A stretch of DNA of 64,000 nt, taken from contig NC_019567.1 of assembly GCF_000317895.1 (NCBI RefSeq), forward strand, positions 992,001-1,056,000, written 5' to 3'. This document shows, one piece after another, positions 5,546 to 15,508 of this stretch (positions within the stretch are counted from its first letter, which is position 1; every line of letters begins with the position of its first letter). Source of the stretch: Bdellovibrio bacteriovorus str. Tiberius. GTDB lineage: Bacteria; Bdellovibrionota; Bdellovibrionia; Bdellovibrionales; Bdellovibrionaceae. The position numbers were made by a program, and so were the translations under genes. Under the pieces are notes generated by a model. That model saw only the letters and a program-made list of their open reading frames with translations. It ran no database searches and was not told the DNA's origin.

Positions 5546-6316
5546 ATGGAATGGATCGATATTCACGCACATTTGAATATGCTCGAAGAGGGTGTTGAAG
5601 CCGCTATCAACAATGCGAAGGCCGTGGGCGTGAAGAAGATCATCACCATCGGCACCCAGCCGGAAGATCATCCGATCGTTCTGGATATCGCCCGTAAATA
5701 TTATCCGGAAGTGTACTGCACTTTGGGTGTGCATCCTCATGACGGTGGCGTTTACACGGAAGCTGCCGGTAAATTTATCGAAGACCACGTCAGTGAACCT
5801 TGTGTGGTGGCTGTCGGTGAAATCGGTCTGGATTATTATTATGACAATTCCCCGCGTGAACTTCAGAAGGAAGCCTTCCGCGCGCAGCTTGAAATCGCCC
5901 GCAGAACAAAAATGCCGGTCGAGATTCACACCCGCGATGCGGAAGAAGACACGATCGAGATTTTAAAAGAATTCAAAGGCGAGCTGACAGGGCTGATCCA
6001 TTGCTTCACGGGAACAGAATGGCTGGCCCGCCAGGCGTTGGACGTGGGATTCAATATCTCTATCAGTGGTGTGGTGACTTTCAAAAGTGCCGATTCTTTG
6101 CGTGAAACAGTGAAGATGCTGCCACTGGATCGTATCCATGTGGAAACCGATTCACCCTTTCTGGCGCCGATCCCGATGCGCGGGCGTAAGAACACTCCGG
6201 CTTACGTTGTTCACACGGCGAAGTTCGTGGCTGACCTGAAAGGGATCAGCCTTGAACAACTGTGTGAGCAGACGCGTATCAATGCTCTGAAAATGTTCCC
6301 GAAAATTCAGTGGTAG
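5546..6316 (+). CDS. tatD: TatD-family metal-dependent DNase
   Basis: TatD-type proteins are TIM-barrel metallohydrolases with 3'-5' exonuclease activity, usually cytoplasmic. All family signatures are visible in 256 residues: HAH at residues 7-9, the metal-binding Glu in VGEIGLDYYY, His in EIHTRDAEED, HCFTGT, and the C-terminal Asp in VETDSPFLAP. The length is normal. The 3' end overlaps the convergent protease gene by 38 bp. It completes a tmk-holB-tatD cluster. Confidence 0.93.
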   Translation: MEWIDIHAHLNMLEEGVEAAINNAKAVGVKKIITIGTQPEDHPIVLDIARKYYPEVYCTLGVHPHDGGVYTEAAGKFIEDHVSEPCVVAVGEIGLDYYYDNSPRELQKEAFRAQLEIARRTKMPVEIHTRDAEEDTIEILKEFKGELTGLIHCFTGTEWLARQALDVGFNISISGVVTFKSADSLRETVKMLPLDRIHVETDSPFLAPIPMRGRKNTPAYVVHTAKFVADLKGISLEQLCEQTRINALKMFPKIQW

Positions 6317-7214
6317 TTTGCAGCAACTGGGCGCGCGTGGTTTTGATCCATGGCGCGAACGGGGCCACCTTGGTCGCCTGGGCAATGCCAGCACAGCTGA
6401 CTTGTCCGTTTGGCAGGCGTTTGCCATAGACCGCGGAATTGACTCCGATCACTTTCAGCACACCATTTTCATGTGAAAACTGCGGTCCACCGGAATCCCC
6501 CTGACAGATGAATACCGGCACTTTTGAGTTCAGCCAATAACGGTCATTGTAGCGGTTGAATTGGGAATCGATCCGCATAACTCCACGATGCAGCTGCCCC
6601 AGGTACGCAAAGAGGTCTTCGTTCGGTTTGCCGGTGTAATCCTTAGAGCGTCCAAAGCCATACACATAAACACTTCGGCCGGAATAATCTCTATTGGATT
6701 CGGTGTCGATACTGACCGTGGAATAACCTTCCGGAATGCCGCCATCGAAGGTCGCGATGGCGATGTCATGATCATAAAGTTTGGTGGAATTAAATTTCGG
6801 GTGGTGTTTATACGCCAGTCCCCGGCGGGTGGTTTCACGCACCAGCATCTTGCGGCCGAAGATCTCATAGTTGTTCGTGAACACAATATTGAATCCAGTC
6901 ATGCCTTTGATGCTGTCGTCGAAACAATGCCCGGCTGAAAGCACCGTCTGTGGTGCGATCAGGGTGCCGGTGCAAAATGCCAGAACCTGATTGTGTCTGT
7001 TGATCATTTCAATCAAGACCACGCTGCGGGCGGCTTGGGTACCGCGTTCCCGAATCGGGTCCCCGTTAATAATACCTGTTTGGGACGTGTCGGAAGGCTC
7101 TTCCGCAGCGGGCCCGAATGAACGGGGGCTGCAGGCGGTCAGGGCAAGAAGGGTCGCTGTCAGGGCTGCGACCAGGGTTTTTAAGGCCGGGGAGGGGCTT
7201 TTAAATGCATTCAT
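6279..7214 (-). CDS. Trypsin-fold serine protease lipoprotein (S1 family)
   Basis: This secreted protease is predicted to be lipid-anchored: the signal peptide ends in LLALTAC (Cys28). The mature chain starts its fold at GIINGDPI, the classical S1 activation-site pattern. The triad is His in LSAGHCFD, Asp in YDHDIAIATF and Ser in CQGDSGGPQ; there are several paired cysteines. By simple counting back from the catalytic Ser, the S1-pocket position carries Phe (VFICQGDS), not the Asp of trypsin, so specificity for Arg/Lys is doubtful. The ATG at 7214 has an AGGAGT ribosome site; a longer in-frame start lacks one. Predatory bacteria encode many such proteases to degrade prey protein, which is a plausible role. 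Confidence 0.88.
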   Translation of the reverse strand: MNAFKSPSPALKTLVAALTATLLALTACSPRSFGPAAEEPSDTSQTGIINGDPIRERGTQAARSVVLIEMINRHNQVLAFCTGTLIAPQTVLSAGHCFDDSIKGMTGFNIVFTNNYEIFGRKMLVRETTRRGLAYKHHPKFNSTKLYDHDIAIATFDGGIPEGYSTVSIDTESNRDYSGRSVYVYGFGRSKDYTGKPNEDLFAYLGQLHRGVMRIDSQFNRYNDRYWLNSKVPVFICQGDSGGPQFSHENGVLKVIGVNSAVYGKRLPNGQVSCAGIAQATKVAPFAPWIKTTRAQLLQTTTEFSGTFSEH

Positions 7215-7406
7215 GGGATGACTCCTTGATGTGATCATCAATTGCTATCGCACGCTTTGCGGGGTCACCCGTTTTCTTTCTGAAACCTGCAAAAACACAG
7301 TTACCGTGAGGACTTGGGAACGCGCCGAAAAAGGACCTGCTGTCTAATTCTGAGTCAGTAAAAAATGCCCAGCTCAAAATTAGAGCTTATTTAGGAACCA
7401 TTGTGG

Positions 7407-7423
7407 AGGCACGAACTTTGGAA
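7407..7423 (+). promoter_or_regulatory. GGCAC-N7-TTGG-type promoter-like element, copy 1
   Basis: GGCACGAACTTTGGAA has GG at 7408-7409 and GG at 7420-7421, exactly 12 bp apart as in sigma-54 -24/-12 elements. The second dinucleotide is GG where sigma-54 promoters have GC. The element ends 36 bp before the ATG at 7459. Copies 2 and 3 lie before paralogous genes at 9065 and 12168. Confidence 0.45.
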
Positions 7424-7458
7424 TAATCGCACTGTCTATTAAAAACAGGAGCGTCTTT

Positions 7459-8922
7459 ATGAAGAACACACAATGGGTGGCGGGTTTGCTTGCCGCCGTG
7501 ACTTTGATTCAGGCCTCAGCCCACGCTGAGATTATTTCGGACCTGCCGGGCTTTGACGATGGTGGCTCTCAAGGCCAGACGTTCCGTCCGCCTCCTCCGC
7601 CGATGCCTGATCAGGGCGTGACCCGTCAATATACGGATGTGGCGAACCTGGATCAGATCAGCCGCAAATCCGGTGGTGAAGCCTATCGTTTTAATCTGGT
7701 TCAACCCACTGTTTTGAAATATCTGGAGCTGAAAGTTCAGTCCAGCCGCCTGAAGATCCATGAAGCCACGGTGATGACCGTCAGCGGTCAGCGCTATATG
7801 ATTCGTGAATTCCATAACAGCAACGTGCTTGAATCGGGCACCGTGTTGACCTCTGAAAACCTGAATCTGAATGAAGACATCCGCACGATTGAGCTGCGTA
7901 TGGAGTCCTATTCCAATGCGGCGACGATTTCCCTGAAAGCCGTGGGGGACAGAGCGGTTCCTCGCCTGTCTGTGCAAAGACCTGTGATTGTGGCGCCGCC
8001 GACAACACCTTCACAGCCCAATCGTCCGACGCAGCCGTCGCAACCAAGCCGTCCGGTCGACACGCGTTTGAGTTCCGGTGATGTTGTGGTGTCGGTTTCT
8101 TCTCAGGGCAAATACTATGATGGCCGTGTGGTTGAGGTTTATCAGAACGGCAAGGTTCTGGTTCGCGACAATGACGATGGCAAAACATACGTTCGCGATA
8201 TTTCCACTGTAGGCAAACGTATTTCCTGTGCATCCAATGGTTTGTGCGAAGGTGAAAACGTCATGGCGTACCCTGTGGGGACTCAGTCTAAAAACTACAT
8301 GGGTAAAGTCATGGCTATATATTCCAATAATATGGTGAAAATGCGTGATGAAGATGACGGCAAGGAATACTTCCGCGATATCAAGGTCATCCACCGCAAA
8401 TTGAACTGCCTCGAGTCCCTTTGTGTGAAAGACCGTGTTCTTTCCCGCTCGAATGACGGTTCCAAGTACTACGGCGGTAAAATTGAAGAGATCTATTCCA
8501 ATGGTATGTTCGCTGTTCGTGATGACGATGATAGCAAGGTTTACCTCCGCGTAAGCCAGAACCTCTTTAAATCCGTACAGTGTCACAGTTCAGGTCTTTG
8601 TATTAAAGACCGTGTGATGTCCAAATCCACTGACAAGTACTACTTCGGCACAGTGACAGGGGTTTACTCCAATGGCCTTATTTATGTGCGCGATGACGAC
8701 GACGGTAAATCTTATGCTCGTCAGCAGAACGTAGTGTTTAAAGAAGTCAAATGTGCCAACGGCTTCTGCCGTGGCGACCGTGTTCTGTCCACTCTGAGCA
8801 ATGGCCGTTATTATGCAGGCCGTGTGGAAGGGGCCTATTCCGGCGGCATGATCTCGGTTCGTGATGACGACGACGGCAAGGTGTACGTGCGCCCTCATAC
8901 GGTTTTGTCCCGCGCCAGATAG
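7459..8922 (+). CDS. Secreted shared-domain protein with five acidic DDDDGK repeats
   Basis: The 487-residue product has a signal peptide (cleavage near Ala23), a Pro-rich segment (43-50), and a ~105-residue beta-rich domain (about 60-165). The domain pattern is ISRKSGGE, RLKIHEATV, GQR, IREF and SENLNLNEDI, ending in ES-Y. It is shared with the products at 9065, 10698 and 12168. A Pro/Gln/Ser linker (about 171-200) leads to five tandem repeats of about 55 residues. Each has Y-x-G-x-V, Y-S/Q-N/G-G and a VRDDDDGK-x-Y-x-R strand, and most carry a Cys pair at the junction. The repeats look like small SH3/Tudor-like beta barrels. The shared domain resembles a carbohydrate-binding-type beta sandwich, but no function can be assigned. 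First gene of the four-gene locus. Confidence 0.85.
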   Translation: MKNTQWVAGLLAAVTLIQASAHAEIISDLPGFDDGGSQGQTFRPPPPPMPDQGVTRQYTDVANLDQISRKSGGEAYRFNLVQPTVLKYLELKVQSSRLKIHEATVMTVSGQRYMIREFHNSNVLESGTVLTSENLNLNEDIRTIELRMESYSNAATISLKAVGDRAVPRLSVQRPVIVAPPTTPSQPNRPTQPSQPSRPVDTRLSSGDVVVSVSSQGKYYDGRVVEVYQNGKVLVRDNDDGKTYVRDISTVGKRISCASNGLCEGENVMAYPVGTQSKNYMGKVMAIYSNNMVKMRDEDDGKEYFRDIKVIHRKLNCLESLCVKDRVLSRSNDGSKYYGGKIEEIYSNGMFAVRDDDDSKVYLRVSQNLFKSVQCHSSGLCIKDRVMSKSTDKYYFGTVTGVYSNGLIYVRDDDDGKSYARQQNVVFKEVKCANGFCRGDRVLSTLSNGRYYAGRVEGAYSGGMISVRDDDDGKVYVRPHTVLSRAR

Positions 8923-8927
8923 TCCAA

Positions 8928-8943
8928 GGCGCCCTTGGGCGCC
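8928..8943 (+). terminator. GC-rich hairpin without T tract
   Basis: GGCGCCC and GGGCGCC can pair just after the stop codon, but no run of T follows. It could be a weak or Rho-assisted terminator or an mRNA 3' end stabiliser. Confidence 0.35.
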
Positions 8944-9013
8944 CGCTGTCCAGGAATGAGACAGTTGACCAGCTTTAAAACAAATTTATCTGTGTTTGAG
9001 TCCCTCCGCAGGC

Positions 9014-9029
9014 GGCACGAACCTTGGAT
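9014..9029 (+). promoter_or_regulatory. GGCAC-N7-TTGG-type promoter-like element, copy 2
   Basis: GGCACGAACCTTGGAT (GG at 9014-9015 and 9026-9027) matches copy 1 at 12 of the first 14 positions or better and has the identical 36-bp distance to its start codon at 9065. This supports a functional shared promoter or operator. Confidence 0.45.
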
Positions 9030-9064
9030 TACTGCCTGCGGAACCAAAACAGTATGGAGTCTTT

Positions 9065-10627
9065 ATGAAACGTCGGTTGATTGCCACTGTGCTTGCGACA
9101 CTTGCGATGATGCAAAATGCCCAGGCGGATATTATTTCAGACCTGCCAGGCTTTGATGATGCCGGCACGGGCACGGCGTTCCCGCCACCTCCACCTGAGG
9201 CAGGGTCTGATACTCAAACAGTGCAGCGCCAGTACACGGGCGAAGTTCAGGTGCGCGAGGTGTCCCGCAAAACCGACGGTGAGATCCGTAAGATCACTTT
9301 GGCTGAGGCTTTGACTTTGCAAAATATGGAAATCAAAGCCCGCAACGCCCGCGTGAAAATTCACGAAGTGACTTTGATTCTGGCCAATGGTCAGCGTTCC
9401 GACGTTCGTGAGCTTAGAAACGCGGCTGTTTTGGATATCGGTGGGACCGCGTCCTCCGGCAACTTGAATTTGAATCAGAAAGTGGCGGCGATTGAAATCC
9501 GCGCTGAATCCTATGGTGGTATCAGCGAATTGTCCGTGAGAGCGGTTTCTGATCTGGGTGTGCCGCGCATGACGGCGCAGGCTCCGGCAGTCGCTACACC
9601 GGTAGCTCCAACAGCTCCTCCAGCTCCGGGCCGTGCTGAAGAATCCGCGACTGTTCGTGTGGCTGACAAGGTTCTGTTCAACAACGGCAATAACTATGTC
9701 GGCACGGTGAAAGAGATCTTCATGAACGGTAAAGCCCGTGTCAGCTTCCCGGGTTACAGCCAGGATTCAATTCTGGATGTGAAGGATCTGGCTCGTTCCG
9801 TGAACTGCCAGGGCACTCACTGTGTGGGCGACCGCGTTTTGTTTGATAACGGCAACCAGTATGTGGGCGTGATCAGTCTGGTCTTTAGCAATGGTGTCAG
9901 ACAGGTCAAGTTCCCGGGTTACAGTGAGCCTTCTTATCTGAAAGGTCAAGACCTGCAAAAGTCTGTTCAATGTGTGGGTGCTGTGTGTGCGGGTGAAAGA
10001 ATCATCTACAACAACGGCAGCAACTATTATGCAGGCACTATCCGTGAGGCCTTCGTGAATGGCACAGTTTCCATCAAGTTTGACGGTTACAGCGAGTTGA
10101 GCTTCATCGATCAGAAGAAGCTGATGAAAAATCAGGCTTGCGGTAAAAATATCTGTGTCGATGACCGTGTGATGTACAACAACGGCAGTGGCGTTTTTGG
10201 TGGCCAGGTGAAAGAAATCTACACAGATGGTTCCGCCAAGGTCCGCTTTGATGGATACAGCGAGGTCAGCTATATCCACACATCTCGTCTGGTGAAGGCG
10301 ACGTCTTCTGTGCAAGGCCTCAGCAATGGCACACGTGTTCTTTTCTATAATGGTTCTGGTCACTTCATCGGAACAGTTCGTGAGACTTTTGCTGATGGCA
10401 CCGCTTCTGTCCGCTTTGATGGTTACTCTGATCTGAGCTTCATCGATGTGAAACGTCTGGGGCTTCAGACTGATTGTAAGAAAAATATCTGCACAGGCAA
10501 CCGCGTGATCCTGAATGGTCAGCATCCAGGAACTGTGCGTGCGGTCTATACCAATGGTTATGCGTTGGTGAAGTACGATGGATACAGTGAGATGAGCTTT
10601 ACTGATATATCCAAGCTTTCAAGATAA
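9065..10627 (+). CDS. Secreted shared-domain protein with six FDGYSE-type repeats
   Basis: The 520-residue product has a signal peptide ending near QAD, followed by IISDLPGFDDA, nearly identical to the mature N-terminus of the protein at 7459. It then has the same ~105-residue shared domain and a Pro/Ala linker. Six repeats of about 55 residues follow, with the pattern DRVLFNNG-x-Y-x-G-T-V-x-E-x-F-x-NG-x-x-V-x-F-x-GYSE and Cys pairs at the joints. The repeat has the same rhythm as in the previous gene, but the acidic DDDDGK strand is replaced by a hydrophobic FDGYSE strand. The ATG at 9065 is chosen for the signal peptide; a longer frame from 8996 reads through the promoter region. The gene at 10698 follows after 70 bp with no clear terminator and may be co-transcribed. 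Confidence 0.85.
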   Translation: MKRRLIATVLATLAMMQNAQADIISDLPGFDDAGTGTAFPPPPPEAGSDTQTVQRQYTGEVQVREVSRKTDGEIRKITLAEALTLQNMEIKARNARVKIHEVTLILANGQRSDVRELRNAAVLDIGGTASSGNLNLNQKVAAIEIRAESYGGISELSVRAVSDLGVPRMTAQAPAVATPVAPTAPPAPGRAEESATVRVADKVLFNNGNNYVGTVKEIFMNGKARVSFPGYSQDSILDVKDLARSVNCQGTHCVGDRVLFDNGNQYVGVISLVFSNGVRQVKFPGYSEPSYLKGQDLQKSVQCVGAVCAGERIIYNNGSNYYAGTIREAFVNGTVSIKFDGYSELSFIDQKKLMKNQACGKNICVDDRVMYNNGSGVFGGQVKEIYTDGSAKVRFDGYSEVSYIHTSRLVKATSSVQGLSNGTRVLFYNGSGHFIGTVRETFADGTASVRFDGYSDLSFIDVKRLGLQTDCKKNICTGNRVILNGQHPGTVRAVYTNGYALVKYDGYSEMSFTDISKLSR

Positions 10628-10697
10628 AGCCGAGTGGTAAATAGAGATTAGAAATTAGGGTTTTGAAGTTTAAATACCTGTAAATCTGGAGAATGTT

Positions 10698-12062
10698 ATG
10701 AAAAAGAAACTGGTTCTTGGAATGTTGGCTGCGGCAGCAGTGATGCAGGCGACAAGCCCTGCGATGGCACAATACAATGACAACCGCCCGGGTCGTTACC
10801 CTGAAGCTCCGATGCCACCACCACCTCCGGGTCAGTATCTTCAGGAAGGCACTTTGGAAATCCAGGGTATCAGTCGTAAATCAGGCGGAGAGTACTATCG
10901 CATCAGCCTGCGCCGTGCGGTTTCTTTGGAGCGCATTGAAGTGGCGGCTTTGGCAATGCGTTTGAAAATTCACGATGCCAGCGTGATCACTGAAGACGGC
11001 CAGCGTGTTTCCATCCGTGAATTCCGCAATACAGCGGTGTTTGGTGTGGGTTCCCGCGCGGTTTCTGAAAACCTGAACCTGCGTTCCCGCATCGTCGCTA
11101 TCGACATCCTGGCTGAATCCTATGGTGGTTATGCAGATGTTCGCGTGACGGCGCTGTCTACAGACGAGCGTCCTCAGCTGGTTCTGGGCAATCTGCAGCC
11201 GGAAAGACCTCAGCGCCCGGATCGCCCAAACCGTCCTGAGCGCCCTGATCGTCCAGGCAATGGTGGCGGCCACGGTGGTGGTAACAATGTCTGCGCTCGT
11301 CGTGCTGACGTGACTCAATTGCTGGCACAGCTTGATGCAGACATGGAAACTTACAGCCGCACGAAAAACTCTGCAAGCTACGGCAGTCCGGTTTACAACA
11401 TGGCTGAACGTGAACTGCAAGCCACCGCAGCGAAGATGATCGAAGTTGCCAACAGCCGCGAAGGTAAAGAAACCGCTCTTGAAAAACTGGAGATTTTGGG
11501 TGCTTTGTACTTCAAGAAGATGAATCAGTCTTCTTATGGTTCCACTCAGTACAATGCGTATTCTGCAGTGGGCACGGCAATGTTTAATGCGATGGAAAAA
11601 GGTCTTGAGGTGACAATGGCCTGTGACCTTCGTTCCACTCAAGAGCTGCTGGCGAAAGCTGACGAGATGTCCAGAAAGATGAATCAGCAGTCTTATGGAT
11701 CTGTTGCTTACAACGCCTACATGGGTCTTTCAAAAAAGCTGTACTCTGAAGCGCCGGGTTTCTTTGAGAAAGAAGCTTATCAGAACAGAAGAACGTATGT
11801 TGATATGAATACGGATCTGGAAGCCTTCTTTGCGAAGGGTGTGTCGTATTCTTACGGTTCTGTGGCTTATAATTCTTACCAGGAGCTGGTGCAAAAAGCC
11901 TCTTTGGTTGCACAAGCCAGCTTGAGAGCCTCTTTGCCTGGTATGCGTCCTTTGGAGCGCATTGAACTGGTGAAGCAGTTCGATTCACGTAAGAACCGCT
12001 TCTCTTACGGCAGTGTTATTTACAACCACTACGAAGCTATGCGGGACATCAGCTCAAAATAA
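10698..12062 (+). CDS. Secreted shared-domain protein with YGSxxYN helical repeats
   Basis: The 454-residue product begins with a signal peptide cleaved after MAQ-like AMA, a PMPPPPPGQY segment and the shared domain (EIQGISRKSGGEYYRISL through AESYGGYADVRV). A linker rich in RP dipeptides and glycine follows, then a helical region with five copies of an S-YGS-x-x-YN motif spaced about 50-60 residues apart and preceded by cysteines. The start is an ATG with a GGAG ribosome site. No enzymatic motif is seen. The YGSxxYN repeats may be a scaffold or binding module. No copy of the GGCAC element was found before it, consistent with transcription from the gene at 9065. Confidence 0.83.
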   Translation: MKKKLVLGMLAAAAVMQATSPAMAQYNDNRPGRYPEAPMPPPPPGQYLQEGTLEIQGISRKSGGEYYRISLRRAVSLERIEVAALAMRLKIHDASVITEDGQRVSIREFRNTAVFGVGSRAVSENLNLRSRIVAIDILAESYGGYADVRVTALSTDERPQLVLGNLQPERPQRPDRPNRPERPDRPGNGGGHGGGNNVCARRADVTQLLAQLDADMETYSRTKNSASYGSPVYNMAERELQATAAKMIEVANSREGKETALEKLEILGALYFKKMNQSSYGSTQYNAYSAVGTAMFNAMEKGLEVTMACDLRSTQELLAKADEMSRKMNQQSYGSVAYNAYMGLSKKLYSEAPGFFEKEAYQNRRTYVDMNTDLEAFFAKGVSYSYGSVAYNSYQELVQKASLVAQASLRASLPGMRPLERIELVKQFDSRKNRFSYGSVIYNHYEAMRDISSK

Positions 12063-12071
12063 AGGTGTGTT

Positions 12072-12094
12072 AAGGGAATTTCGGTTCCCTTTTG
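12072..12094 (+). terminator. Intrinsic terminator
   Basis: AAGGGAA pairs with TTCCCTT (12072-12078 with 12085-12091), with a six-base loop and a short T run. It closes the 9065-10698 unit before the promoter element of the next gene. Confidence 0.65.
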
Positions 12095-12108
12095 ACACTG
12101 GTTTTCTT

Positions 12109-12124
12109 GGCACAAAGTTTGGAT
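12109..12124 (+). promoter_or_regulatory. GGCAC-N7-TTGG-type promoter-like element, copy 3
   Basis: GGCACAAAGTTTGGAT has GG at 12109-12110 and 12121-12122, the same 12-bp phase as the other two copies. The distance to the ATG at 12168 is 44 bp rather than 36. Confidence 0.42.
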
Positions 12125-12167
12125 ATAGGGTCAACGGATTCACTAATCAGTCTTTTAAGGAGACTTT

Positions 12168-13142
12168 ATGAAAAAGAACCTCGTTCTAGGATCAGTAATT
12201 GTCGCTTCCCTTGTACAATATACAAGCCCTGCGTTTGCGAACAAAGAAGTTATCGGCGGTATCATTGGTGGTATCATCGGTGGCGGTATCGGTACGCAAA
12301 TTGGTAAAGGGAACGGCAACAAAGCAGCTATCATCATCGGAGCTGTGGCTGGAACATTGATTGGCTCTAAAGTCGGCAAGGACTTGGATGAAGCTGATCG
12401 TCAGGCTCTGGCAGAAGCGCAAAGACGTTCTTTGCAGGACAATATCGGCAGCCGCCGCGACTGGGATGGCCGTTCTTATGGTTCCCGCACCGGTGCTCGC
12501 GGAAGCTTCACTTCCACTCGTGAAGGTTACAACAACCGCACGGGCGAATACTGCCGTGAATACACTTCCATCATCTACATGCGTGACCGCACCGAAGAAA
12601 CCCGTGGATATGCGTGCTCTCGCCGTGATGGTTCCTGGTATGAAGTAAAAGAGACTGAAGTTCGCTTCAACGGCCGTGGCAACGGTGGTGGCGGTGGTCG
12701 TCACAATAACGAACCAATCCGTCCTACTCCGGCTCCGACTCGCCCAACTCCTCCTCCAGCGCCGGGCGGTCAGTATGGTCATGGTTATGAAGGCACAGCT
12801 CAGATCAGCCAGATCACCCGCCGCACTGGTGGTGAGTGGTTCCGTGTGACCCTGCGCTATCCAATCGCTTTGGATCGCATCGAGATCCGTGGCTTGGCTG
12901 CGGGTGTTAAAATCCACGATACGACTGTGTATACTGAATCCAACCGTCGCATCCAGGTTCGTGAGCTGACCAACACGGGTACAGTTTACGCGGGTGATAC
13001 AGCGATTTCCGAGAACCTGAACCTGCGTGAGCGTGTTCAAGTTATCGACATCCGTGCTGAGTCCATGGGTGGCGTTGCCGACGTACTTGTGAAGGCGATT
13101 TCCAGCGAAGACCGTCCTTCCCTGACAGTCAGCCGTTACTAA
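12168..13142 (+). CDS. Glycine-zipper outer-membrane-type protein fused to the shared domain
   Basis: The 324-residue product has a signal peptide, then a glycine-zipper segment (IIGGIIGGGIGTQIGKG and IIIGAVAGTLIGSKVGKDL, about residues 27-70). This is typical of 17-kDa-antigen/glycine-zipper 2TM proteins that insert in or associate with the outer membrane. The next region (about 95-170) with EYCREYTS and ETRGYACSRRDGSWYEV matches the C-terminal part of that surface-antigen family. A Pro-rich linker leads to the shared ~105-residue domain at the C-terminus (QISQITRRTGGEWFRVTL to AESMGGVADVLV). The domain order is therefore reversed relative to the three upstream paralogues. A likely membrane-anchoring member of the set (inference). 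Confidence 0.85.
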   Translation: MKKNLVLGSVIVASLVQYTSPAFANKEVIGGIIGGIIGGGIGTQIGKGNGNKAAIIIGAVAGTLIGSKVGKDLDEADRQALAEAQRRSLQDNIGSRRDWDGRSYGSRTGARGSFTSTREGYNNRTGEYCREYTSIIYMRDRTEETRGYACSRRDGSWYEVKETEVRFNGRGNGGGGGRHNNEPIRPTPAPTRPTPPPAPGGQYGHGYEGTAQISQITRRTGGEWFRVTLRYPIALDRIEIRGLAAGVKIHDTTVYTESNRRIQVRELTNTGTVYAGDTAISENLNLRERVQVIDIRAESMGGVADVLVKAISSEDRPSLTVSRY

Positions 13143-13199
13143 AAAACATCAGTGCCGCCAAAAGCGGTACAGATGCGGAAATTTTAAGTAATTTTCACT

Positions 13200-13240
13200 A
13201 AAAGCCAGTCTATGACTAACAGTGTCTAGACTGGCTTTTT
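13200..13240 (+). terminator. Strong intrinsic terminator before gapA
   Basis: A perfect 13-bp stem (13200-13212 with 13227-13239) with a 14-base loop ends in a T run. It terminates the gene at 12168 and leaves only 48 bp before the gapA start, so the gapA promoter must be inside that stretch, overlap the hairpin, or transcription must read through. Confidence 0.8.
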
Positions 13241-13288
13241 AGTCTCCAAAAGTCGATATTGAGTGGGTTTAAAACAAGGAGCTCACTC

Positions 13289-14296
13289 ATGTCTAAGTTG
13301 CGTGTTGGTATCAACGGTTTTGGTCGTATTGGTCGTGTTCTTTTCCGCGCGGGTTTTGAAAAATTCGATATCGTCGGAATCAATTCTCTGGACAGCATCG
13401 AAGGTGATGCTCACTTGCTGAAATACGACTCTGCCCACGGCGTGTTCAACGCTGATGTTTCCACCGAAGGTCACAACCTGATCGTAAACGGTAAAAAAAT
13501 CGCAGTTTCCAAAACTCGCAATCCAGCCGAAGTTCCTTGGAAGGACCTGGGCGTGGACATCGTTCTTGAGTGCACAGGCGCATTCAAAAAACGCGAAGAT
13601 TTCATGCAGCACATCTCTGCTGGTGCAAAACGCGTTCTGGTTTCCGGCCCTGCTGAAAAAGGCGCTGACATCACTATGGTGTACGGTATCAACCACGAAT
13701 CCTACGATCCATCCAAGCACGTTGTTGTTTCCAACGCGTCCTGCACGACAAACTGTCTGGCGCCTTTGGCGAAGGTTCTGAACGACACATTCGGTATTGA
13801 ACACGGTACCATGATGACAGTTCACTCTTACACGAATGACCAGAAGATCCTGGACGCTCCTCACAGCGATTTGCGCCGTGCCCGTGCAGCGGCTGTCAGC
13901 ATGATCCCGACAACAACGGGTGCTGCGAAAAACGTGGGCCTGGTGCTGCCAGAGTTGAAAGGTCTGATCGACGGTATCTCCGTGCGTGTTCCGACTCCGA
14001 ACGTTTCTTTGGTGGATTTTACATTCACTGCGAAAAAAGACGTGACCCGTGAATCCGTGAACGAAGCTTTGATCAAAGCTTCTGAAGGCGCGATGAAAGG
14101 TGTTCTGGCGGTAGAGCACAAAGAACTGGTCAGCGTTGACTTCAACGGCAACAAACACTCTTCCATCGTCGATCTGGCTACAACCATGGTTGTGGGCCCG
14201 CGCATGGTGAAAGTTCTTTCCTGGTACGACAATGAAACTGGCTTCTCCAACCGCATGGTTGACGTTGCTTTGCACATGCAGAAGAAAGGTCTTTAA
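13289..14296 (+). CDS. gapA: Glyceraldehyde-3-phosphate dehydrogenase
   Basis: The enzyme oxidises glyceraldehyde 3-phosphate to 1,3-bisphosphoglycerate with NAD in glycolysis. The 335-residue chain has the Rossmann start VGINGFGRIGR, the catalytic motif SNASCTTNCLAP with its Cys, and the C-terminal SWYDNETGFSNRMVD. The length is normal. The ATG at 13289 has an AAGGAG ribosome site 8 bp upstream; an upstream in-frame start was rejected. It is the first gene of a gapA-pgk-tpiA operon with 3-bp and 11-bp gaps. Confidence 0.97.
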   Translation: MSKLRVGINGFGRIGRVLFRAGFEKFDIVGINSLDSIEGDAHLLKYDSAHGVFNADVSTEGHNLIVNGKKIAVSKTRNPAEVPWKDLGVDIVLECTGAFKKREDFMQHISAGAKRVLVSGPAEKGADITMVYGINHESYDPSKHVVVSNASCTTNCLAPLAKVLNDTFGIEHGTMMTVHSYTNDQKILDAPHSDLRRARAAAVSMIPTTTGAAKNVGLVLPELKGLIDGISVRVPTPNVSLVDFTFTAKKDVTRESVNEALIKASEGAMKGVLAVEHKELVSVDFNGNKHSSIVDLATTMVVGPRMVKVLSWYDNETGFSNRMVDVALHMQKKGL

Positions 14297-14299
14297 TTC

Positions 14300-15508
14300 A
14301 TGGCTAACGGTCTTAAAGGCATCAAGACAGTTCGTGACTTCGAGTTGGCAGGGAAAGTTGTTTTCCTGCGCTTGGATTTGAACGTTCCAATGGAGAACGG
14401 CAAGATCACGGATGAAAACCGCATCACGGCTTCTTTGCCGACAATCAAGTATTGCATGGAACAAGGTGCGAAGCTGGTTATGGCTTCCCACCTGGGCCGT
14501 CCAAAAACCAAAGACGACACAGAGTTTTCTTTGGAGCCTGTGGCAAAACGCCTGCAGGATCTTTTGAATGCCGAAGTGATTCTGGTGGAAGAACCGGACT
14601 CTGACGCTCCAAAACACCTGTTGCCTTCCCTGAAACCAAATCAGTTGATCCTTCTTGAAAACGTGCGTTTTGAAGAAGGGGAGACGAAGGACTCCATCGA
14701 GTTCGCGCAAAAGATCGCCAACTACAGCGACATTTATATCAATGACGCTTTCGGGGCTTCTCACCGCGCTCACGCGACCATTCATGCTTTGCCTTCAGTG
14801 ATGAAGGACAAAGGCATTGGCTTCCTGATTGAAAAAGAAATCACGATGCTGGATTCCTTGCTGCAAAATCCAAAACGCCCGTACATCGCGGTGATGGGTG
14901 GAGCAAAGGTTTCTGACAAGATCGCGGTTATCGAACGCCTGATGGACGTTGTTGACGGTTTCATCGTGGGTGGCGCGATGGCGTACACTTTCCTGAAAGC
15001 TCAAGGTCTGCCAGTTGGTAAATCTTTGGTTGAAAATGACAAATTGAAATACGCGAAAGAAATGATCGAGCGTATTGAAGCCCGCAATAAAACCATTTTG
15101 TTGCCGGTGGATCATGTGGCAACCAAAGGCATCACGGACACAGCGCACGCGCATGTGACCAATGATGTGGCGATCGCAGAAGACGAACTGGGTGTGGACA
15201 TCGGTCCTAAGACCATCAAGAACTTCTCTGCAGCTTTGCGTGAAGCGGGAACTATTTTCTGGAACGGCCCTATGGGCATCTTTGAAAATCCGGCCTTCGC
15301 TAAAGGCACTTTCGGCGTAGCTGCGGCTATTGCTGAAAGCGATGCAGTTAAAATCGTGGGTGGTGGTGATTCTGCAGCGGCAGCGGAAGCTTCCGGCTTT
15401 GCAGGTAAAATGACCCACATTTCCACAGGTGGTGGCGCGTCCCTGGAATATCTTCAGGGCGATAAGCTTCCAGGTTTGGAAATTCTTAGAACCCGCATCC
15501 GCGCATAA
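14300..15508 (+). CDS. pgk: Phosphoglycerate kinase
   Basis: Transfers phosphate from 1,3-bisphosphoglycerate to ADP. The 402-residue protein shows the substrate-binding segment LRLDLNVPME, SHLGRPK, LLENVRFEEGE, NDAFGASHRAHA, the MGGAKVSDKI motif and the nucleotide loop GGGDSAAAAE. These are all family landmarks in the expected order and spacing. It starts 3 bp after gapA and is followed by tpiA. Confidence 0.97.
   Translation: MANGLKGIKTVRDFELAGKVVFLRLDLNVPMENGKITDENRITASLPTIKYCMEQGAKLVMASHLGRPKTKDDTEFSLEPVAKRLQDLLNAEVILVEEPDSDAPKHLLPSLKPNQLILLENVRFEEGETKDSIEFAQKIANYSDIYINDAFGASHRAHATIHALPSVMKDKGIGFLIEKEITMLDSLLQNPKRPYIAVMGGAKVSDKIAVIERLMDVVDGFIVGGAMAYTFLKAQGLPVGKSLVENDKLKYAKEMIERIEARNKTILLPVDHVATKGITDTAHAHVTNDVAIAEDELGVDIGPKTIKNFSAALREAGTIFWNGPMGIFENPAFAKGTFGVAAAIAESDAVKIVGGGDSAAAAEASGFAGKMTHISTGGGASLEYLQGDKLPGLEILRTRIRA

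What the first reader, a model, noticed from the sequence alone, without database searches (positions are those of the whole stretch)
7407..13142. Four adjacent secreted proteins share one domain with four different partner modules
Seen: genes at 7459, 9065, 10698 and 12168 each encode a signal peptide, Pro-rich linker and a ~105-residue domain with ISR(K/R)(S/T)GGE, LKIH(E/D), VRE(F/L), ENLNL and (A/M)ES(Y/M) landmarks. Partners differ: five acidic beta repeats, six FDGYSE repeats, YGSxxYN helical repeats, and a glycine-zipper outer-membrane module. Inference: a modular envelope or extracellular binding system, perhaps a common ligand-binding beta sandwich anchored by the fourth protein. No such set is known to me.
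Basis: partly seen in the sequence, partly recalled or inferred. Interest (0 to 1): 0.8.

Follow-up and report, generated by a model that had tools for sequence, protein, structure and literature searches.

The report
Bdellovibrio prey-entry jelly-roll protein cluster
Four neighbouring genes of a predatory bacterium make exported proteins that share one sugar-binding-like domain joined to different tails; they belong to a named but functionless Bdellovibrio family, and they appear to be switched on together with proteins the predator uses to invade other bacteria.

Summary
Four adjacent genes (7459-13142) encode exported proteins sharing a ~115-residue domain. That domain is a catalogued family, Pfam PF18820 "Bdellovibrio beta-sandwich" (E 1e-30 to 1e-58), so it is not unknown, but no function is assigned. 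A 2025 proteome paper names two adjacent HD100 members (Bd1044/Bd1045, which must lie in this cluster) on a list of proteins found in killed, uninvaded prey. AlphaFold2 models give a jelly roll whose closest solved folds include carbohydrate-binding modules. The partners reduce from four kinds to three: Tudor/KOW-like barrels (genes 1 and 2), a helical solenoid (gene 3), and a glycine-zipper membrane module (gene 4). One glycine-zipper member sits just upstream of gapA in 22 of 24 genus genomes. The two epibiotic (non-invading) relatives have an empty site and no copy of the domain. New here: genes 1, 2 and 4 share an upstream element, GGCAC-N4-Y-TTGGA, with sigma-54 spacing. It also precedes the invasion adhesin Bd0875, an L,D-transpeptidase, a subtilase and lipoproteins. 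Best reading: co-regulated prey-entry proteins, each using the jelly roll to bind a glycan or other surface ligand. Ligand, sigma factor and delivery into prey remain untested.

The parts
7408..7422 (+). shared upstream element GGCACGAACTTTGGA, 51 bp before the gene 1 start codon
   Evidence: one of only 3 such sites in the 64-kb window (0 of 100 shuffles reach 3)
7459..8922 (+). gene 1: exported protein, 487 aa, PF18820 domain + 5 Tudor/KOW-like repeats
7630..7974 (+). gene 1 BD_b_sandwich domain (aa 58-172)
   Evidence: PF18820 E 1.7e-34; own HMM
8065..8919 (+). gene 1: five acidic (DDDDGK) beta repeats with C-x4/5-C linkers
   Evidence: (DUF4537, 33.5 bits over the 27 cut-off)
9014..9028 (+). 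shared upstream element GGCACGAACCTTGGA, 51 bp before the gene 2 start codon
9065..10627 (+). gene 2: exported protein, 520 aa, PF18820 domain + 6 Tudor/KOW-like repeats (GYSE type)
9233..9577 (+). gene 2 BD_b_sandwich domain (aa 57-171)
   Evidence: PF18820 E 7e-58; modelled, block pLDDT mostly above 90
9647..10624 (+). gene 2: six beta-barrel repeats
   Evidence: AF2 model; VIA matches Spt5 KOW2-KOW3 Z 8.7 and UHRF1 tandem Tudor Z 8.6
10698..12062 (+). gene 3: exported protein, 454 aa, PF18820 domain + helical solenoid (YGSxxYN)
   Evidence: no GGCAC element of its own, 71 bp after gene 2
10842..11186 (+). gene 3 BD_b_sandwich domain (aa 49-163)
   Evidence: PF18820 E 2.8e-31; AF2 model
11292..12059 (+). 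gene 3 helical repeat module with two Cys
   Evidence: AF2: helices over residues 206-453, block pLDDT mostly above 90; homologous to L002/L003 tails
12109..12123 (+). shared upstream element GGCACAAAGTTTGGA, 59 bp before the gene 4 start codon
   Evidence: same type of element before 17 of 22 genus orthologues
12168..13142 (+). gene 4: exported protein, 324 aa, glycine zipper + 17-kDa-antigen-like region + C-terminal PF18820 domain
   Evidence: orthologue 117-221 bp upstream of gapA in 22 genus genomes
12252..12377 (+). gene 4 glycine zipper 2TM (aa 29-70)
   Evidence: PF05433, 29.1 bits over the 24.2 cut-off
12483..12641 (+). gene 4 17-kDa surface antigen-like stretch (aa 106-158)
   Evidence: PF16998, 25.7 bits, just under the 26.6 cut-off; the fusion protein P0010 passes with 29.2
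12786..13130 (+). gene 4 BD_b_sandwich domain (aa 207-321)
   Evidence: PF18820 E 8.2e-30
13200..13240 (+). intrinsic terminator between gene 4 and gapA, marking the end of the cluster
   Evidence: located; -22.3 kcal/mol, z -7.4, followed by a T run

Best explanation
The four genes are a locally duplicated set of a Bdellovibrio-genus family of exported proteins built on one jelly-roll ligand-binding-like domain (PF18820) joined to exchangeable modules. Shown by computation: homology, fold class, modularity, conserved position next to gapA, empty site in the two non-invading relatives, and a shared upstream element also found before the invasion adhesin Bd0875 and wall- or protein-cutting enzymes. 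Inferred: at prey contact a sigma-54-type promoter turns these genes on. The proteins are exported across the predator's inner membrane by Sec and, for at least the soluble ones, released at or into the prey. There the jelly roll binds a glycan or other polymer of the prey or bdelloplast envelope, and its partner supplies a second function: Tudor/KOW barrels as a multivalent binder, the solenoid as a protein-protein scaffold, the glycine-zipper protein as the membrane-linked member. In short: an adhesin and scaffold kit for prey entry rather than an enzyme set.
For: Export signal in all four. Jelly roll in two separately run models (different target proteins, overlapping alignments), with VIA Z 8.0-9.6 to PAPP-A modules, CBM32 (2v72 8.6, 4a3z 8.1), the AlgX C-terminal domain (4knc 8.5) and weaker to CBM29 (7.6). 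Published (PMC12546842): Bd1044/Bd1045 are named in connection with the 31 proteins that Tyson et al. (PMC11003981) found in empty bdelloplasts and up-regulated at 30 min of predation; in the genome whose length matches HD100 the only adjacent PF18820 genes are this cluster. Element GGCACN4YTTGGA: in the window only before genes 1, 2 and 4; 192 hits against 81 control in 24 genomes; 23 of 60 non-family sites precede exported-protein genes against 1 of 60 on the opposite strand and 49 of 1200 random positions. Targets include Bd0875, identified by D66, E213, Y349 and C22, a YkuD L,D-transpeptidase and an S8 protease. rpoN is present. Empty tatD-gapA site and no PF18820 in P. exovorus JSS and Ca. 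B. qaytius.
Against: No ligand or binding site was tested; jelly rolls also occur in capsids and structural proteins, and the VIA output warns that Z near 8 can be a common arrangement. Intraperiplasmic Bacteriovoracaceae mostly lack the family (3 weak members in family f12), so it is not needed for invasion as such. The element departs from sigma-54 at the -12 GC (GG instead), and gene 3, L004 and the helical paralogues lack it. Which two of the four genes are Bd1044/Bd1045 was not settled. The empty-bdelloplast list also holds proteins from burst predators (PMC11003981), and the 2025 paper says 12 of the 31 were not raised at entry. Bd2715, another member, is reported as up-regulated during growth in prey, not at entry. 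In two MAGs the gene at this locus has the barrel repeats but no PF18820 domain.
Confidence: 0.45

Rival explanations
1. The proteins are structural or protective components of the predator's own envelope (periplasm, outer membrane or cell surface), linking its wall or outer membrane, and are not delivered to prey.
For: Glycine-zipper/17-kDa-antigen modules are typical of a bacterium's own envelope proteins. The gene 4 type is the only copy in four genus genomes (G134, G140, G143, G149) and sits next to gapA in 22, which looks like a core envelope function. Peptide detection in empty bdelloplasts can come from lysed predators (PMC11003981).
Against: Shared upstream element with prey-entry genes; complete absence of PF18820 in the two epibiotic relatives of the same family.
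Confidence: 0.3
2. Secreted prey-damaging effectors: the variable modules act on prey macromolecules (toxin- or enzyme-like) and the jelly roll is the targeting part.
For: Bd1044/Bd1045 are named among candidate prey-targeting proteins (PMC12546842); the same upstream element precedes a subtilase and an L,D-transpeptidase.
Against: No catalytic Pfam family passes its cut-off in any of the four proteins; the tails are repeats of binding or scaffold type.
Confidence: 0.12
3. Prey-recognition adhesins displayed on attack-phase cells before entry, rather than proteins made on contact for the entry step.
For: Jelly-roll matches include sugar-binding modules; the family is specific to Bdellovibrio and relatives.
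Against: The published attack-phase promoters are dominated by a FliA motif (TTAAG-N16-CCGATA; PMC3627812), whereas these genes carry a different element shared with a gene induced on prey contact (PMC11003981).
Confidence: 0.1

Closest known systems
Pfam PF18820 BD_b_sandwich (Bdellovibrio Beta-sandwich), including HD100 Bd1044, Bd1045 and Bd2715
   Same: All four window proteins are members well over the cut-off (26.1 bits; they score 104-195).
   Different: The Pfam label carries no function; the modular architectures, genus-wide gapA-linked locus, fold class and shared promoter element described here were not found in the papers searched.
CBM32 / F5-8C-type carbohydrate-binding jelly rolls (e.g. 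C. perfringens NanJ CBM32, 2v72)
   Same: Predicted fold: VIA Z 8.6, 103 residues, 2.8 A.
   Different: No PF00754 match by sequence; sugar-binding residues untested; 5-17% identity among the CBM matches.
Tudor / KOW / SH3-like tandem barrels (Spt5 KOW, UHRF1 tandem Tudor, DUF4537)
   Same: Fold of the gene 2 repeats; gene 1 passes the DUF4537 cut-off.
   Different: Exported, probably disulphide-linked (two Cys per linker), tandem 5-7 times; eukaryotic Tudor members act on methylated residues inside cells.
Rickettsia 17-kDa antigen / glycine-zipper outer-membrane proteins (PF05433, PF16998)
   Same: Glycine zipper and Cys-containing 17-kDa stretch in gene 4.
   Different: No lipobox Cys; extended by a Pro-rich linker and a jelly roll.
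Sigma-54 (RpoN) promoters, consensus TGGCACN5-7TTGCT (PMC12316311)
   Same: Same -24 half and same spacing; the genome has one rpoN, the HD100 gene being bd0843 (PMC3464611).
   Different: The -12 half is TTGGA, not TTGCT; canonical TTGC sites also exist in this genome, and at least 8 of 15 precede plausible ORFs, most with export signals.

Membership tests
PF18820 BD_b_sandwich | profile match over the curated cut-off | tested here: met
   119, 194.7, 108.7 and 103.9 bits against 26.1
PF18820 BD_b_sandwich | beta-sandwich fold | tested here: met
   two AF2 models, all-strand domain with block pLDDT mostly above 90
CBM32 / F5-8C carbohydrate-binding modules | jelly-roll fold | tested here: met
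   VIA Z 8.0-8.6 to several CBM32 chains
CBM32 / F5-8C carbohydrate-binding modules | sequence profile match (PF00754 family) | tested here: not met
   not among Pfam hits at E<=1 for the four proteins; one of 23 relatives matched PF22633 at only E 0.015
CBM32 / F5-8C carbohydrate-binding modules | binds a sugar | not testable with these tools
   needs a binding assay
Tudor/KOW repeats | SH3-like barrel fold | tested here: met
   Spt5 KOW2-3 Z 8.7; UHRF1 Z 8.6, 57 residues, 1.6 A
Tudor/KOW repeats | Pfam Tudor model over its cut-off | tested here: not met
   Tudor_2 19.8 bits against 31.4; DUF4537 passes for gene 1 only
17-kDa antigen lipoproteins | glycine zipper 2TM | tested here: met
   PF05433 29.1 bits against 24.2
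17-kDa antigen lipoproteins | lipoprotein signal peptide with lipobox Cys | tested here: not met
   no Cys in the first 120 residues of gene 4
sigma-54 promoters | -24 GG half and correct spacing to the -12 half | tested here: met
   GGCAC-N5-TTG in genes 1, 2 and 4
sigma-54 promoters | -12 GC dinucleotide | tested here: not met
   GG in all three sites; the pattern searched was fixed on TTGGA
sigma-54 promoters | RpoN dependence | not testable with these tools
   rpoN present but no expression data

The most novel reading that the evidence does not exclude
Bdellovibrio has a small prey-entry regulon driven by a sigma-54-type promoter with an altered -12 half (GGCAC-N4-Y-TTGGA), and its largest protein family is a genus-specific kit of jelly-roll proteins with swappable barrel, solenoid and membrane modules that is absent from non-invading relatives.
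Probability: 0.4. Interest if true: 0.75.

Novelty: new variant of a known kind. Interest (0 to 1): 0.58.

Why it matters
How Bdellovibrio times and carries out entry into prey is largely unexplained: published promoter work covers attack phase (FliA), and most proteins found in killed prey have no role. A shared element tying this family to the invasion adhesin Bd0875, an L,D-transpeptidase and a protease gives a testable candidate for the entry switch, and the modular family gives defined proteins whose ligand and location can be measured.

Tried and rejected
Function by solved-structure sequence search: nothing for genes 1-3 or for the domain profile. NCBIfam: no curated match over cut-off. 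The DGLDMT repeats of G141/G153/G164 were tested as relatives of gene 3's helical module and not supported (hhalign probability 6%). Helical solenoid against known folds: barely tested, because the beta domain filled the list. A genus-level alignment was too divergent for the search for related loci; a closer one gave six loci. Rfam: nothing in 6000-14500. Sigma-70-type promoter scan: 5 found against 4.8 expected, uninformative. Exact assignment of Bd1044/Bd1045 among the four genes by gene counting from Bd1029 was ambiguous. The heuristic start choice mis-set some genes, gene 1 among them; its site was found directly. Full careful tree not finished; the quick tree was used and many forks are weak.

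Full report
WHAT IS THERE. The window is G000:C1:992001-1056000 of a 3,988,594-bp chromosome. Its length matches B. bacteriovorus Tiberius (3.989 Mb) in Table 1 of PMC11656739; the same table gives G133 = HD100, G136 = SSB218315, G139 = kdesi (also named in the title of L103), G140 = LBG001, G142 = SKB1291214, G144 = NC01, G145 = ZAP7, G147 = KM01, G134 = W, G173 = P. exovorus JSS and G174 = Ca. B. qaytius. These identities rest on chromosome length. The four reported genes are real, intact and exported.

THE DOMAIN. All four match Pfam PF18820 'Bdellovibrio Beta-sandwich', and their mutual similarity is far above shuffles. The genome holds eight copies: the four here, two with helical tails (L002, L003), one with seven barrel repeats beside sucD (L004) and one with an Arg/Asp-rich N-terminus (L008). 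In 369 genomes of the phylum 28 have it, 23 of them in the genus; none of 14 control genomes does. I collected 108 full proteins. In a 23-member alignment R12, G16, I87 and E92 are invariant.

FOLD. Two AlphaFold2 models (pLDDT 84.6 and 87.3) give an all-beta domain with high local confidence. Foldseek E-values are weak (best rows 4.5e-4 and above). VIA places the domain at Z 8.0-9.6 with PAPP-A modules, CBM32 chains, the AlgX C-terminal domain and a Thermococcus protease domain. The VIA output warns that Z near 8 may be a common arrangement, so I read this as 'jelly-roll, CBM-like fold', not as membership or as proof of sugar binding.

PARTNER MODULES. Genes 1 and 2 carry the same kind of module: tandem SH3-like barrels (KOW/Tudor matches) with two Cys between most units. 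Gene 3's module is a helical solenoid whose YGSxxYN motifs fall at the helix hairpins; it is homologous to the tails of L002 and L003. Gene 4 has a glycine zipper and a 17-kDa-antigen-like stretch. Other genomes add further tails, and natural fusions join Gly-zipper + domain + YNS repeats (G150) or DGLDMT repeats (G141, G153). Domain phylogeny follows partner type (12 changes against 59 in shuffles), so swapping is occasional, not free. In two MAGs the protein at the gene 1/2 position has barrels without the domain.

LOCUS. The gene 4 type lies 117-221 bp upstream of gapA in 22 of 24 genus genomes; in G137 the orthologue has lost its zipper, and G154 has an unrelated 817-aa gene there. In the two epibiotic relatives tatD and gapA are only about 22-28 bp apart and PF18820 is absent even at E<=5. 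A strong terminator closes the cluster before gapA.

UPSTREAM ELEMENT. Genes 1, 2 and 4 carry GGCAC-N4-Y-TTGGA 51-59 bp before the start codon; these are the only three GGCACN5TTGGA sites in the window (mean 0.25 in shuffles). Genome-wide there are 14 such sites against 6 control; the eight with Y before TTGGA all precede exported-protein genes, and the other six do not look like promoters. The Y was noticed after looking at these sites, so I tested the refined pattern on other genomes: 192 hits against 81 control in 24 genomes (G000 itself and the family's own genes are included). Among 60 sites outside the family in other genomes, 23 precede an exported-protein ORF, against 1 of 60 on the opposite strand and 4.1% of random positions. 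The 60 sites were chosen by me from the listed hits and include orthologues of one another, so they are not independent; the computed p value of 6e-17 is therefore too small, though the contrast with the opposite strand stands. The signal-peptide call is a crude script.

TARGETS. One recurring target is the MIDAS adhesin Bd0875: reading its start as VSMKTL puts C22, D66, E213 and Y349 exactly where PMC11003981 has them. Others are a YkuD L,D-transpeptidase, an S8 subtilase, a ~194-aa lipoprotein and a 156-aa exported protein. bd0875 is reported as about 3-fold up-regulated on mixing with prey. The element has sigma-54 spacing but GG for GC at -12. The genome has one rpoN, and canonical TTGC sites occur too. 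I found no report of the TTGGA form in the Bdellovibrio papers I searched, which is not proof that none exists.

LINK TO PREDATION. [quoted passage not shown] The only adjacent PF18820 genes in HD100 are this cluster, so these are two neighbours among the four; which two is open. Supplementary tables were not available to me.

VERDICT. A known but functionless family, here given a fold class, a modular map, a conserved locus and a shared element with invasion genes. Prey-entry adhesin or scaffold function is my best reading (0.45); an own-envelope role is the main rival (0.3).

Noticed in passing
window 6279-7241 (-): Divergent gene next to the cluster encodes a trypsin-like S1 protease lipoprotein (GDSGGP, SAGHC motifs); a similar gene flanks the locus in kdesi (L103) and in MAG L104.
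   Followed up: no
L238-L252 (own genome): Canonical sigma-54 sites TGGCACN5TTGC: 15 against 6 control; at least 8 precede plausible ORFs, most of which look exported, suggesting RpoN in Bdellovibrio drives envelope/exported genes.
   Followed up: partly
L101:3260-4492, L102:5134-6300: Barrel-repeat proteins with the same signal region and I-x-DLP motif after it but no PF18820 domain, at the gene 1/2 position of the locus.
   Followed up: partly
L132:1647-4100 (G154, reverse-complemented): In the one genus genome without PF18820 an unrelated 817-aa probably exported protein occupies the tatD-gapA interval.
   Followed up: no
window, N-termini of genes 1 and 2; L004; many relatives: Short motif I-x-DLP directly after the signal peptide in most barrel-type proteins, possibly a sorting signal.
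   Followed up: no
G074, G128, G120 (L033-L035): Distant PF18820 proteins in another family of the phylum carry their own Cys-rich repeats (FYCNSEDLYQGR, CTAACKGLNG).
   Followed up: no
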